From the NCBI RefSeq assembly GCF_010993745.1, contig NZ_WOTN01000004.1, positions 310,001 through 374,000 on the forward strand: a DNA stretch of 64,000 bases, given 5' to 3'. Positions 9,009 to 62,131 of this stretch are shown one piece after another. The notes under the pieces are model-generated. The model searched no databases. It was not told the DNA's origin and saw nothing but the letters and a program-made list of their open reading frames with translations. The stretch comes from Fodinicola acaciae (GTDB lineage Bacteria; Actinomycetota; Actinomycetes; Mycobacteriales; HKI-0501). The position numbers and the translations under genes are program-made. How positions within the stretch are numbered: the first letter of the stretch is position 1; every line of letters starts with the position of its first letter.

Positions 9009-10156
9009 CCAAGACAACGACCGGCGTCGAAATGCTCGACGCCATTCGTACGGCCGTCACCCGGTACGTAGTGATGCCGAGTCCGGCGACCACCGATGCC
9101 GTCACACTGTGGATCGCCGCAACGCACGCTCAACCGGCCTGGGCTCACGCCCCGCGGCTTGTCATCCGTGGCCCGGAACGGCGCTGCGGAAAGTCCCGGC
9201 TGCTCGATGTCGTCGAGGCCCTGAGCCGCGACCCGCTGCTGACCGTCAACGCGTCCGCCGCTGCTGTTTATCGGTCCGTGAGCGTTGATCCGCCGGTCAT
9301 CCTGGTCGATGAGGCTGACACGATTTTCGGTGCCAAGGCTGAGGGAAACGAAGACTTGCGGGGCCTGCTCAACGCTGGTCATCAGCGCAATCGGCCGGCC
9401 GTGCGGTACGACGCTGCGACCAATAGCGTGCAGCACCTGGAAACGTTCGCGATGGCCGCGCTCGCTGGCATCGGCCAGATGCCCGACACCATCGAAGACC
9501 GCGCCATCATCGTGCGGATGCGCCGCCGCGCGGCCGGTGAGGACGTGGCGACCTTCCGGTACAAGCGCGACCGCCAGCCGCTGCGCGCGTTCGCGACCAA
9601 ACTGACCAACTGGCTGCGGGCCGACCTGAAAGCCCTTGAACGCATTGAGCCAGAAATGCCGATCGAAGACCGCGCCGCTGACACCTGGGAACCGCTGGTG
9701 ATCGTCGCCGACCACGCCGGAGGGGACTGGCCGGAGCGTGCCCGTACGGCCGCCAAGACGCTCACGCAGCAGGCCAGCGACGACGGCCAGGTCTCTGACA
9801 GGGTGCGGCTGCTGGCCGATTGTCGTACCGCTTTTGGCGTCGACACGGCGCTTTCCACGGCCGCACTGCTGGATCGGCTCAAAGCCAACCCAGAAGCGCC
9901 ATGGAGCGAGTACGGGCCGAACGGCCTGACCGCGATGCGGTTGGGAAACATCCTGCGCGAGTACGAGATTCGGTCCGGCAACATCCGGTTCCCGGACGGA
10001 AAACAGGCCAAGGGCTATCAGCGCGTCGACTTCAACGACGCCTGGAAACGGTACTGCCCCCGCGCGCTCGCAGCTGTTCCGGATGCCACTTCCGGAGGGG
10101 ACGCCGTCCAAGCCGTCCCAGCATCATTTTCGCAGGTCAGGGCTGGGACGCCTTAA
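9005..10156 (+). CDS. DUF3631-type AAA ATPase/helicase of the replication module
   Basis: 383 residues from ATG 9005, overlapping the preceding stop. Walker A GPERRCGKS (residues 56-64) and Walker B VILVDEAD (98-105) are clear, followed by a sensor-like MAALAGIGQMPDTIEDRAIIVRMRRR. The C-terminal part (residues 200-350) includes the DUF3631-like region WEPLVIVADHAGGDWPERAR and a small HTH-like end (LGNILREYEIRSGNIRF). In AICEs and phages DUF3631 ATPases accompany Prim-Pol and are taken as replicative helicases or initiators. The last coding bases already contain copies of the repeat that fills the next intergenic region. Confidence 0.8.
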   Translation: MTKTTTGVEMLDAIRTAVTRYVVMPSPATTDAVTLWIAATHAQPAWAHAPRLVIRGPERRCGKSRLLDVVEALSRDPLLTVNASAAAVYRSVSVDPPVILVDEADTIFGAKAEGNEDLRGLLNAGHQRNRPAVRYDAATNSVQHLETFAMAALAGIGQMPDTIEDRAIIVRMRRRAAGEDVATFRYKRDRQPLRAFATKLTNWLRADLKALERIEPEMPIEDRAADTWEPLVIVADHAGGDWPERARTAAKTLTQQASDDGQVSDRVRLLADCRTAFGVDTALSTAALLDRLKANPEAPWSEYGPNGLTAMRLGNILREYEIRSGNIRFPDGKQAKGYQRVDFNDAWKRYCPRALAAVPDATSGGDAVQAVPASFSQVRAGTP

Positions 10157-10241
10157 AACCGTGGGACGGCTAAGCCGTCCCAGCAAAACAAGCCGTCCCA
10201 GGGCTGACCTGCGGAAACGACCCTGGGACGGCTTGGACGGC
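10110..10241. repeat. Iteron-like CCGTCCCAG repeat cluster, candidate origin or excision control site
   Basis: At least six copies of AGCCGTCCCAG-type sequence in both orientations: 10110-10122, 10142-10150 (-), 10161-10171 (-), 10172-10184, 10190-10203, 10221-10234 (-), and a partial at 10235-10241. 10163-10170/10174-10181 form a tight hairpin; 10190-10203/10221-10234 form a perfect 14-bp inverted repeat. It sits between the DUF3631-type ATPase gene and xis. Confidence 0.65.
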
Positions 10242-54902: not shown

Positions 54903-55607
54903 GTGAACGCGACAGCCGGACAGAACGTTCCACCGCCGGAGACGGCCGACACCGATCGTCCGATCCTGCCCGAGGGGCTCTTCGCCGAGCTGCGCGCGGA
55001 TCCGTTGCACGCGCCAGAACATCTCGCTCTCGAGGCGGTGCGCCGCACCGGCCCGGTGGCCCGCGCCTGGGTCGCACAGTGGCGCTCGCCACGTGCCACT
55101 CCGCGCTGGCAGGCCCGGCAGATCCAGAAGCGGTTCACCTGGCACGCGCGCTATTCCGGCGCCGCCGGCGGCGTGTTGGGGCTGCCTGGCGCGGTCGCCG
55201 ATGTGGCCGTGCTGTCGTGGACACAGGCCCGGATGATCGTGCATCTGGCGGCCGCGTACGGATTCGACCCCTGCGACCGCGAGCGTGCGGCCGAGATCCT
55301 GTTGCTGACCGGCGTGTACGACGCCCTGCACCTCGCCGAGACCGCGGTGAAGGTCGCCGCACGCCGCGCGCCGGCTGCCGAGCTGCTGAAGCACGGCGGT
55401 GGCGGGTCGGTGTCGGAGGTGGCGGCGCGGCTGGCCGTGATGGTCGGCATGAAGCTGGGCAAGCGCGCGTTGTTACGCGCCGTGCCACTCCTGTCGGTGC
55501 CGCTGGCGGCGATGGGAAATGCCGGCTCGACGAAGAAGCTGGCGCGCAAGGCGATCGGGATGTACGAGCACAAGGCGGCCGGACGCGCGGCGATCACGCA
55601 CCAATGA
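54903..55607 (+). CDS. EcsC-family protein
   Basis: 234 residues from GTG 54903. The EcsC region includes FTWHARYSGAAGGVLGLPGAVADVAVLSWTQARMIVHLAAAYGFDP (in parts), ILLLTGVYDALHLAETAVKVA and a C-terminal AVPLLSVPLAAMGNAGSTKKLARKA. The family is widespread and linked to membrane or secretion functions, but its biochemistry is unknown. Divergent from the MprF-like gene, convergent with the RT gene (14-bp overlap). Confidence 0.8.
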   Translation: MNATAGQNVPPPETADTDRPILPEGLFAELRADPLHAPEHLALEAVRRTGPVARAWVAQWRSPRATPRWQARQIQKRFTWHARYSGAAGGVLGLPGAVADVAVLSWTQARMIVHLAAAYGFDPCDRERAAEILLLTGVYDALHLAETAVKVAARRAPAAELLKHGGGGSVSEVAARLAVMVGMKLGKRALLRAVPLLSVPLAAMGNAGSTKKLARKAIGMYEHKAAGRAAITHQ

Positions 55608-56841
55608 GCGCGTCGAAAGCGGCTCGCAGCCGCGCGCCGTGGTCCGGATTGGCGGCCGCCACCCAGGAGATCCGGCCGAGCAGGTGGTTGGCGAAATCCG
55701 GATGACCGTGCCGGTTGGCCGCATCGAGGCCGTTTGTCGAGGCATCGTGCAAAATCGCGCGCAGCCGATCGCGCTCGGCCCGGGTCGCGTTGGGTCGGTC
55801 GTTGACGACCAGGCCGCCGACCAGCTGCCGGACGCCGGCCCGCGCGATGACGGTTTTCCTTGAGTTGACGTGAAATCCCTCGTCCGTGCAGATCTTTTCC
55901 ACCGTACGGACAAGTTTCTCGGCCGGCATCCGCCGGTCGCCGGAAAACGTCAGGTCGTCGGCATATCTGCTGTAGGTGGCGTCCAGCCGGTAGGCGCAGA
56001 GGTTGGCCAGCGCAGGGGAGGTCGGTGCGCCTTGTGGCAGATGAGCGGTGGCGAGTTTGGCGCACAGCCAGCGATGCGCGGCGGCCAGACCCGGATCGCT
56101 CGGCGGCGCGGCCGCGTCGCGTACGGCCGCCGGTGTCGTCGTGGTGAGAAGGCCGGCGAGTTGGTGAGCGACCGGCTCGGCATAGCCGATCGTCCGCAGC
56201 ACTCCGTAGACCCGGCCGGCGGTGACGGTCGCGAAATACTGGCGGAGATCCAGGCGTACGACCACGTCACGGCCAGCATGCAGTCTCGCGTGGGTCAGCG
56301 CGGACCGGCCGGCGACGAAGCCGTGCGCCGCGGGATGTGCCGGCACGGCGGCCAGAATGCCGGCGCCCACTCGGCGCTGCAGCTCCTGGAGTGTCCACTT
56401 TGGACATCCGAGCAGCCGCCTGTTTCGGCACCCAGGTGCACCGATAGTGGCGCAGCCGCTCGGAAATGTTGGTGTGGCGGAGCCGCCGCTGCGGATCGGC
56501 ATACCAGCCGAGCGAGTCGACGTCGAGGCCGAGCCAGCCGGCGAGATCGGGGATGGTGTCCAGAACGGGCACCGGCCAGCGCAGCTCGCCGTGGCGGACC
56601 GGCGTCGGCGTACGGTGGCGCGGCCGGCCGACGCGCTCCGGTGACGGCAGCCGGCCGCTGGCCGCGATGAAGTCGGTGAGCTCGCGCGGCCGGTCGGCCG
56701 GATAGGCGCGCCAGCAGTGATCGGCGAGCCGGCGGGTCCACATCGAGCGGCCGATCGTCCAGCCGGCGCGCTCGACCATCGCGTCCGGCTGCCAGTCGCG
56801 AGATATGCCTCGGCGGCGAGCTCGCGGCGTGCCTGGTCCAT
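55594..56841 (-). CDS. Retron-type reverse transcriptase, apparently frameshifted N-terminus
   Basis: 415-residue open frame from ATG 56841. From about residue 146 it is a normal retron-type RT: PAHPAAHGFVAGRS, first Asp in VVVRLDLRQYF (198), LPQGAPTSP (268-276), YADDLTFSG (YADD 293-296), and a thumb with RQLVGGLVVND. Residues 1-17 (MDQARRELAAEAYLATG) also look native. Between about 56790 and 56408 the native sequence is in another frame (ERAGWTIGRSMWTRRLADH, WPVPVLDTIPDLAGWLGLD, ERLRHYRCTWVPKQ). Loss of 1 bp near 56788 and of about 11 bp near 56408 explains this; the two shifts cancel. RT identity high, activity uncertain. Confidence 0.8.
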   Translation of the reverse strand: MDQARRELAAEAYLATGSRTRWSSAPAGRSAARCGPAGSPITAGAPIRPTGRASSPTSSRPAAGCRHRSASAGRATVRRRRSATASCAGRCPFWTPSPISPAGSASTSTRSAGMPIRSGGSATPTFPSGCATIGAPGCRNRRLLGCPKWTLQELQRRVGAGILAAVPAHPAAHGFVAGRSALTHARLHAGRDVVVRLDLRQYFATVTAGRVYGVLRTIGYAEPVAHQLAGLLTTTTPAAVRDAAAPPSDPGLAAAHRWLCAKLATAHLPQGAPTSPALANLCAYRLDATYSRYADDLTFSGDRRMPAEKLVRTVEKICTDEGFHVNSRKTVIARAGVRQLVGGLVVNDRPNATRAERDRLRAILHDASTNGLDAANRHGHPDFANHLLGRISWVAAANPDHGARLRAAFDALIGA

Positions 56842-56888
56842 CGCCTCCCCCGTGGGTTTCGTTCACCGTACGCGCGTCCTGGTCGCCG

Positions 56889-57004
56889 CGCCGAAACTGT
56901 CGGTGGTGGCTGGAACAATAAAAATCGGGGATCCCCCAGGGACCGTGGCCGGATTTTGGCGCCCCCGAAAACAAGCCTTCCATCGCGCGCCGACAGTTTC
57001 GGCG
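56889..57004 (-). ncRNA. Candidate retron msr-msd non-coding RNA
   Basis: On the minus strand, upstream of the RT, CGCCGAAACTGTCGG (57004-56990) and its perfect complement (56903-56889) flank 86 nt. A second inner pairing TCGGGG/CCCCGA and a possible AAAATC/GATTTT lie within. The right arm ends 47 nt before the RT start codon. This matches the a1/a2 inverted repeats and placement of retron msr-msd. No conserved branching-G motif could be assigned. Confidence 0.45.
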
Positions 57005-57192
57005 ATGCCGAGGTGGCGGGCAGCATGTCAGGCAGGGTGGACCCGACCGGTCCGGCCGTGCGTGCGCCGGTCTGCGCGCCGGCAGGGACGCGCATGCGAC
57101 GAGATGTCCAAGCACCTCCTCACCCCTGGGGGTTCCCAGGACACCGTCCACGAAGGACGGTTGGGGCTCGGGCCCACGCTGCGGCGCTCAGG

Positions 57193-61138: not shown

Positions 61139-61954
61139 ATGACTAATCGGCTGTTGTTCGTGTCGTTGGGGCTGGTCGGCGTTCTCGCGCTCACGGCATG
61201 TGGCCAGAAGAGCAACGTCTCCACGCCACCACCGCGTACGACCACCGCCGCTTCGGTGTCCCCGACGCCATCGGTCTCGCCGACACCGTCCGCGTCACCG
61301 TCCCGCGTGGTGCCACCGCAGACCAGCCAGTACGGCGGACAGCCGCTGTCCGGTGGCGGCAAGGCGCCGCTGCGTACGGTCGGCGGCAAGCGCGTCGCGC
61401 TGACCATCGACGACGGGCCCGACCCGACCTGGACACCGCGCTATCTGCGGCTGCTGGCGAAGCTGCGGATCAAGGCGGTGTTCTGCCTGATCGGCGAGAA
61501 CGTGCGGCGCTATCCGGGGCTGGTGAAGCAGATCGTGGCCGGCGGGCACACGCTGTGCAACCACACGATGCATCACGACCTGAAGATCGGCCGGCGCAGC
61601 TCGTCGACCATGCACACCGACCTGACCGGCACCACCGCGGTGATCATGCGCGCCAGCGGCGGCGTACGGCCGGTGTTCTTCCGCGCGCCTGGCGGCAACT
61701 GGACCTCGCGTCTGCTGGCCGAGGCTCGCCGCGACGGCATGACACCGCTGGACTGGAGCGTCGACCCGCGCGACTGGTCACGGCCCGGTGTGGGGCACAT
61801 CACCTCGGTGATCAAGAACGCCAAACCCGGCTCGATCATCCTCTGCCACGACGGCGGCGGAAACCGCTCGCAGACATACGCCGCGCTGCAGAAAGCCCTG
61901 CCGGCGCTGAAGTCGCGGCGGCTCGCCTTCGTCATCCCGACGCCGGAGAAATAG
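61139..61954 (+). CDS. Lipoprotein polysaccharide deacetylase (NodB domain)
   Basis: 271 residues from ATG 61139. Lipobox LTAC (Cys21) and a Ser/Pro/Thr-repeat linker (SVSPTPSVSPTPSASPS) tether the catalytic domain to the membrane. NodB motifs: LTIDDGPDPT (MT1), HTMHH (MT2), RAPGGNW (MT3), DWSVDPRDW (MT4), ILCHDGGGNR (MT5). Removes N- or O-acetyl groups from peptidoglycan or another cell-surface polymer. The TAG stop is the first base of structured element B. Confidence 0.9.
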   Translation: MTNRLLFVSLGLVGVLALTACGQKSNVSTPPPRTTTAASVSPTPSVSPTPSASPSRVVPPQTSQYGGQPLSGGGKAPLRTVGGKRVALTIDDGPDPTWTPRYLRLLAKLRIKAVFCLIGENVRRYPGLVKQIVAGGHTLCNHTMHHDLKIGRRSSSTMHTDLTGTTAVIMRASGGVRPVFFRAPGGNWTSRLLAEARRDGMTPLDWSVDPRDWSRPGVGHITSVIKNAKPGSIILCHDGGGNRSQTYAALQKALPALKSRRLAFVIPTPEK

Positions 61955-62131
61955 GGCCTGTTTCGAAGTCCCACGTGGATGAGAGTCGAGATCCAAACGT
62001 CGTCTGGCGGTGCGGCGGGACCGCCCGGCGCGGCAGCGCCACGTGGGCGGTTTCGCCGTGCCGTCAGACGGCCCGAGACAGATGTGACAGCGGCTCGGCC
62101 ATCGCCGCGTGGGACTTCGAAACAGGCCCTA
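61952..62131. repeat. Structured repeat element B (long inverted repeat with conserved core)
   Basis: 27-nt arms (61952-61978 and 62105-62131, 26 of 27 paired) starting TAGGGCCTGTTTCG, enclosing a nested weaker stem and a core (61981-62002) identical to element A at 35631-35652. TA at each end suggests target duplication. It begins exactly at the deacetylase stop codon and fills nearly the whole convergent gap. Confidence 0.65.

What the first reader, a model, noticed from the sequence alone, without database searches (positions are those of the whole stretch)
56889..57004. Candidate actinobacterial retron: long-range inverted repeat directly upstream of a retron-type RT
Seen: on the minus strand a 15-nt sequence and its perfect complement enclose 86 nt, ending 47 nt before the RT start. 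Known: retrons encode msr-msd RNA with terminal a1/a2 complementary repeats just 5' of the RT. Inference: this 116-nt region is the msr-msd of an undescribed retron; an 86-nt loop is too large for a terminator.
Basis: partly seen in the sequence, partly recalled or inferred. Interest (0 to 1): 0.8.

Follow-up and report, generated by a model that had tools for sequence, protein, structure and literature searches.

The report
Decayed retron; repeat mistaken for msr-msd
The 116-base inverted repeat is one copy of a palindromic repeat scattered through this actinobacterium's genome; it lies inside a broken retron whose real template RNA sits just upstream and belongs to an RNA family found beside related reverse transcriptases in several bacterial phyla.

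Summary
Observation confirmed: 56889-57004 has perfect 15-nt arms, beyond chance, and the adjacent gene is a retron-type RT. But the 116 nt are not the msr-msd. They are one copy of a palindromic repeat family: at least 25 places in this genome, 8 in a congener, none reported in 59 other relatives, none beside the RT at 98 related RT loci. The msr-msd lies further 5', at about 57032-57182 (-): a covariance model built without the window finds it (36.9 bits, next 10.6), the only hit reported in the own genome. The same RNA (a1/a2 stem, two msr hairpins, msd stem, invariant G after a1) precedes the RT in 81 of 84 related loci and in 14 of 14 RT loci of order relatives, with covariation and no Rfam hit in 12 loci scanned. 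The window's retron is decayed: the RT changes frame and lacks 11 residues of a 38-residue spacing kept in 93 of 93 relatives. A congener lacks retron and repeat at the syntenic site.

The parts
57032..57182 (-). retron msr-msd ncRNA: a1 57182-57168, a2 57046-57032 (13 Watson-Crick pairs, 1 G-U, 1 mismatch); core model match 57178-57036
   Evidence: covariance model R2 built without the window: 36.9 bits, E 2.8e-5 in the window, only hit reported in the own genome; pairing checked; fold -92.2 kcal/mol, z -3.8, 1 of 200 shuffles as good
57167..57167 (-). candidate priming guanosine, first unpaired base 3' of a1
   Evidence: G in 16 of 16 rows of A9 and 13 of 13 rows of A4; role inferred from the position described in PMC6868368 (passages seen)
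57143..57161 (-). msr hairpin 1 (variable sequence, conserved helix)
   Evidence: helix 2 of A9: 5 of 5 pairs with changes on both sides; window sequence
57124..57141 (-). msr hairpin 2 (conserved hairpin of the family, degenerate here)
   Evidence: helix 3 of A4 and A9; window fold; model alignment
   Evidence: 16 places by blastn, 25 places by model R3 in own genome, 8 in a congener, 0 reported in 59 other relatives; 0 near the RT in 98 RT loci
55594..56841 (-). retron reverse transcriptase gene, disrupted: homology changes frame in the N-terminal half and 11 residues before YADD are missing (junction near 55980)
   Evidence: Pfam RVT_1, PADLOC RT_other; frames by tblastn with relatives; spacing 27 instead of 38 aa
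56417..56800 (-). part of the RT N-terminal region read in the other frame (within ORF 56267-57151)
   Evidence: tblastn with L076, L084, L068; coordinates; PADLOC RT hits of this ORF

Best explanation
The locus is a decayed retron of a widespread retron clade (PADLOC 'RT_other'/'RT_outgroup'). In relatives with an open RT frame the unit is an RNA of about 140-170 nt folded by an a1/a2 stem, two msr hairpins and a bipartite msd stem, followed, usually after 11-44 nt, by an RT with an N-terminal helical region. As in known retrons, the RT would prime on the 2'-OH of the invariant G just after a1 and copy the msd into RNA-linked ssDNA (inferred; no product was measured). In the window the RNA survives at 57032-57182, degenerate. 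A 116-nt palindromic repeat of a genus-restricted multicopy family sits between the RNA and the RT, and the RT gene has lost its frame and part of the helix leading into the catalytic strand, so msDNA synthesis is probably lost.
For: Shown: model R2 (16 relatives, no window) finds 57036-57178(-) at 36.9 bits; next in the window 10.6. It is the only hit reported in the own genome (E 0.0039; 50 of 10,991 first-look candidates were scored). R1 and R2 together find the RNA 5' of the RT in 81 of 84 loci; of the 57 loci that seeded neither model, 54 are hit. In 61 genomes, RTs with E below 1e-60 occur in own + 14, and all 14 relatives have the RNA upstream. The whole-genome RNA search hits 15 genomes; 14 hits lie beside a found RT, the other at a contig edge. 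Covariation: 14 of 35 pairs change on both sides in the unfitted alignment A4, reached by 0 of 500 shuffles; 25 of 35 in the model-fitted A9. Repeat family; no match near 98 RTs. Distance RNA to QGAP motif: median 844 nt in 93 relatives, 989 in the window, 873 without the 116 nt. QGAP-YxDD spacing 38 aa in 93 of 93, 27 here. Congener G001 (74% complete) lacks retron and repeat at the syntenic site.
Against: The window RNA is among the weakest members: lowest of the 16 (others 39.9-81.5 bits), with only L082 (35.2) lower among R2 hits. With R1 alone it ranked second in the window (15.4 against 16.1 bits, E 0.31), though first in its own 3 kb. In A4 one covariation measure, the number of further pair types, does not exceed shuffles (354 of 500 as high). 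No target-site duplication is visible around the 116-nt repeat, so its being an insertion is inferred from copy number, taxonomic range and spacing. One of 93 relatives (L118) has an even longer RNA-to-motif distance, 1083 nt. The frame changes could be sequencing errors; the in-frame 11-residue loss is harder to explain that way. No expression or msDNA data.
Confidence: 0.9

Rival explanations
1. The 116-nt repeat is the msr-msd: its 15-nt arms are a1/a2 and the 86 nt between them hold msr and msd.
For: Position 47 nt before the RT, long-range perfect arms, strong fold.
Against: The sequence occurs at 25 or more places in a genome with one RT match; no match near 98 related RTs; a different conserved RNA occupies the msr-msd position in 95 of 98 related loci and in the window.
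Confidence: 0.02
2. The retron is still active: the frame changes are assembly errors or are bypassed, and the palindrome between RNA and RT is tolerated or serves as an attenuator or processing site.
For: Retrons interrupted by other elements can still make RT-DNA (Retron-Bth1 and -Sda1; PMC12548924, abstract and passages seen). The YADD box and downstream motifs are present, and the RNA fold is kept.
Against: An 11-residue loss in a spacing that is 38 in 93 of 93 relatives, falling in the predicted helix 294-306 next to the catalytic strand (model of relative L076); at least one certain frame change; lowest RNA score of the 16.
Confidence: 0.07
3. The 116-nt palindrome is a functional terminator or regulatory hairpin of the host that recurs, not a mobile repeat. 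(This concerns only the nature of the repeat and can hold together with the best explanation.)
For: 12 of 14 examined copies overlap no coding-like frame, and several lie right behind a coding-like frame or between convergent ones; no target-site duplications seen.
Against: About 110 nt of shared primary sequence including both arms and the inner part; reported only in one genus among 61 genomes, unlike a generic terminator.
Confidence: 0.25

Closest known systems
Myxobacterial retrons (Mx162, Mx65, Sa163, Ne144)
   Same: RT with an extended N-terminal region; priming G in CAGC or GAGC context at the inner end of a1 (PMC6868368, passages seen); two relatives here come from records titled Myxococcales and Labilithrix (L048, L057).
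   Different: The Mx162 transcript is 241 nt (same passages) against about 140-170 nt here; no myxobacterial reference RT or msr-msd sequence was at hand, so kinship was not tested.
PADLOC classes RT_other / RT_outgroup (retron RTs outside the numbered types)
   Same: Best models for the window RT (383.8 and 363.7 bits) and matched by 30 of 30 relatives scanned, RT_other with the lowest best E-value.
   Different: These are protein models; what RNA, if any, is assigned to them could not be looked up (Mestre 2020 not held).
Retron-Ec86 (Eco1) RT
   Same: Closest solved structure by profile (E 2.4e-56) and by fold of relative L076 (Foldseek 7v9x, E 6.6e-20).
   Different: 27% identity; that Ec86 lacks this N-terminal region and has a separate effector gene is recalled, the effector being named in the title of 7v9x.
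Retron-Bth1 and Retron-Sda1 (retrons disrupted by other elements)
   Same: A retron interrupted by another genetic element, without a standard effector (PMC12548924, passages).
   Different: Interrupted by a group II intron or a defence system and still producing RT-DNA; here by a small palindromic repeat, with a damaged RT.
MITE / REP-type palindromic repeats
   Same: Short, palindromic, multicopy, mostly outside coding-like frames, reported only in one genus.
   Different: No target-site duplication seen; a parent element was not searched for.

Membership tests
Retron (locus 55594-57182) | RT of the retron lineage | tested here: met
   PADLOC retron models; NCBIfam retron models match but below their cut-offs; PDB profile hits headed by retron RTs
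Retron (locus 55594-57182) | structured msr-msd RNA 5' of the RT closed by a1/a2 | tested here: met
   R2 hit 57036-57178(-), conserved and covarying in relatives
Retron (locus 55594-57182) | conserved priming guanosine at the inner end of a1 | tested here: met
   invariant G in 16 of 16 rows of A9 including the window; its chemical role not tested
Retron (locus 55594-57182) | intact RT able to act | tested here: not met
   frame change and missing 11 residues: as sequenced the locus is a retron remnant, not a working retron
Retron (locus 55594-57182) | production of RNA-linked msDNA | not testable with these tools
   needs nucleic-acid preparation from cells
Retron (locus 55594-57182) | associated effector gene or fused effector domain | tested here: inconclusive
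   no neighbour family in more than 11 of 84 loci; N-terminal region of 4 relatives has no Pfam match
   no R3 match near the RT in 98 loci
MITE / palindromic repeat (56889-57004) | multicopy, non-coding, terminal inverted repeats | tested here: met
MITE / palindromic repeat (56889-57004) | target-site duplications | tested here: not met
   none visible by eye in the flanks printed, so 'MITE' in the strict sense is not claimed
Myxobacterial Mx162-type retrons | RT and msr-msd sequence kinship with Mx162/Sa163 | not tested
   reference sequences not available here

The most novel reading that the evidence does not exclude
The RNA modelled here (R1/R2) is the undescribed msr-msd of a whole retron clade present in at least six phyla (phyla recalled from the organism names in the record titles: Actinomycetota, Pseudomonadota, Acidobacteriota, Planctomycetota, Myxococcota, Verrucomicrobiota). 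These retrons work without any separate effector gene, the N-terminal helical region of the RT taking that part.
Probability: 0.35. Interest if true: 0.6.

Novelty: new member of a known kind. Interest (0 to 1): 0.4.

Why it matters
It corrects the mapping: a folded palindrome beside a retron RT can be an unrelated repeat, and comparison with relatives tells which RNA belongs to the RT. It supplies a covariance model with a defined a1/a2, msr hairpins and candidate priming G for a large retron clade without an Rfam match in the 12 loci scanned, including culturable actinobacteria, for which PMC6868368 (2019) cites retrons only as bioinformatic predictions (passage). Relatives with an open RT can now be tested directly for msDNA and for whether the N-terminal region is the effector.

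Tried and rejected
A first MAFFT alignment with unequal arms misaligned a1 and was replaced by 13 sequences with equal 11-nt arms; L068, L074 and L080 were left out of that seed and came back through R1. Searching upstream regions for perfect stems alone gave 35 of 85 regions with a stem of 11 bp or more against 11.2 expected from shuffles (the window is one of the 85, and the region taken for L075 was misplaced): informative but not specific. A conserved effector neighbour was sought and not found: the largest clusters cover 11 of 84 loci and look like host synteny. A hit of G019 to the N-terminal query part (E 3.2e-4, a stop inside) was dropped as chance; there the query is read in the wrong frame. 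L019 and L112 were lost from the distance count because my motif pattern missed them (93 of 95 relatives counted). Opposite-strand hits of R1 and R2 (L036; three; seven) were dropped: each overlaps the sense match of its locus. Weak R3 matches in L052, L010 and L031 (50, 41 and 94 nt, best E 0.0074) lie 1.5 kb or more from the RT.

Full report
WHAT IS THERE. On the minus strand, 57004-56990 and 56903-56889 are perfect 15-nt complements around 86 nt, ending 47 nt before the ATG of an RT ORF at 56841-55594. The fold is strong and the stem is not chance.

THE RT. The ORF matches RVT_1 and, in PADLOC, RT_other (383.8 bits) and RT_outgroup (363.7) ahead of the numbered retron types in the best 25 shown. 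Thirty relatives with open frames match RT_other, 30 of 30. A profile of them matches solved retron RTs first (Ec86, Ec67, Ec78), and the predicted structure of relative L076 (mean pLDDT 91, 28 sequences in its alignment) is closest to Ec86. Relatives: 80 loci from a genome collection, the best of 551, and 4 from plasmid records, 84 in all.

THE REAL msr-msd. Regions upstream of many of the relatives' RTs hold long-range stems with varied arms but a shared interior. From 13 of them I made alignment A4 and model R1. In A4, 14 of 35 pairs change on both sides, against 8.6 on average in shuffles, 0 of 500 as high; the covariation score is 0.271 against 0.115; one measure, further pair types, does not exceed shuffles (354 of 500 as high). 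The structure counted was the RNAalifold consensus of the same alignment. R1 hits 59 of 84 loci at E 0.1 or better. Model R2, from 16 loci of wider range found with R1, run on 29 loci (the 25 without an R1 hit and 4 with one), hits 26 of them upstream of the RT. Together 81 of 84; the misses are L004, L052 and L075, the last cut by its contig end. Twenty-seven loci seeded one or both models; of the other 57, 54 are hit.

In the window, R2 gives 57036-57178(-), 36.9 bits, E 2.8e-5; the next match has 10.6 bits. R1, built from more distant relatives, gave the same place 15.4 bits, second to a 16.1-bit match elsewhere in the 64 kb, though first in its own 3 kb. Across 61 whole genomes R2 hits 15 (50 first-look candidates scored per genome); 14 of these (own and 13 relatives) lie beside an RT found, and the fifteenth (G053) lies 150 bases from a contig end, where the RT would be cut off. 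The RT-bearing G032 was missed, whose filters are stricter, but its RNA is found (L110). The window arms are a1 57182-57168 and a2 57046-57032, with 13 Watson-Crick pairs, one G-U and one mismatch. The base after a1 is G in 16 of 16 rows of A9, the position where PMC6868368 (passages) puts the priming guanosine. Rfam has no match up to E 1 in the window region and no RNA of this kind at gathering score in 12 relatives (tRNAs only).

THE 116-NT REPEAT. Blastn in the own genome gives 18 rows at 16 places. An alignment of 11 own-genome copies, the window's among them, gave model R3. R3 finds 25 places (48 rows) in the own genome, 8 places (16 rows) in the only congener held and none in the other 59 genomes (at most 62 candidates were scored per genome, so counts are lower bounds). 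The 8 congener places are independent of the seeds. Of 14 copies checked, 12 overlap no coding-like frame. In 98 RT loci (84 + 14) no R3 match lies near the RT. No target-site duplication is visible by eye. It is a palindromic repeat, so far seen in one genus, that lies between the retron's RNA and RT.

DECAY. Relatives align to the window in one frame for the N-terminal part and in another from about 56418 on, so at least one frame change is certain; a second near the start codon is likely. The spacing from QGAP to YxDD is 38 residues in 93 of 93 relatives in which my pattern found the motif (95 tried) and 27 in the window. The missing residues fall in the predicted helix before the catalytic strand of L076. 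The RNA-to-QGAP distance is 844 nt (median of 93; range 558-1083), 989 in the window, 873 without the repeat. In 30 relatives the chosen RT start lies 4-142 nt behind the RNA match, mostly 11-44; in the window it is 194 nt. The congener G001 keeps the phosphoribosyltransferase-EcsC order but has only about 235 bp between the aligned flanks where the window has about 1.63 kb; it has no RT match (assembly 74% complete) and no R3 match on that contig. Whether the retron was gained here or lost there is open.

MECHANISM. Shown: association, structure, covariation, invariant G, damage. Inferred: that relatives make msDNA by 2'-priming at that G, that the window copy does not, and that the repeat arrived by insertion. 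No neighbour gene is shared by more than 11 of 84 loci, so an effector, if any, may be the N-terminal region, which has no Pfam match in 4 relatives. That is a guess.

LITERATURE. None of the listings shows a paper that describes an msr-msd for this clade, but the key surveys (Mestre 2020; Khan 2024, its identifier recalled) are not held, so I do not claim novelty in print. PMC6868368 (passages) says experimentally validated retron RTs came only from Gamma- and Deltaproteobacteria as of 2019 and cites putative actinobacterial ones; PMC6498646 (one passage) merely labels a retron-type RT in Rhodococcus ruber. PMC12548924 (abstract and passages) gives precedent for interrupted retrons.

The window RNA is among the weakest members, not the weakest (L082 scores lower); whole-genome claims now carry the candidate caps; hairpin 2 coordinates follow the fold.

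Noticed in passing
61952-62131: A second palindromic repeat: 180 bp with 24-bp perfect terminal inverted repeats; 75 match rows (roughly 40 places by eye) in the own genome, the best other copies 97% identical over full length. Looks like a young MITE family.
   Followed up: partly
10103-10241: Perfect 19-bp inverted repeat with 101 nt between the arms; not examined further.
   Followed up: no
L068, L012, L014, L021, L025, L027, L030, L054, L063, L065, L079: In 11 of 84 related loci the same upstream and downstream gene families flank the retron; the upstream one looks to me (recalled, not searched) like the error-prone polymerase DnaE2, suggesting a shared site or vertical inheritance.
   Followed up: no
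L065, L054, L079, L063: In four Amycolatopsis loci the RNA-to-QGAP distance is only 558 nt, and the L065 RT is 341 aa long: most of the N-terminal region seems absent while the RNA is kept. Natural material for testing what that region does.
   Followed up: no
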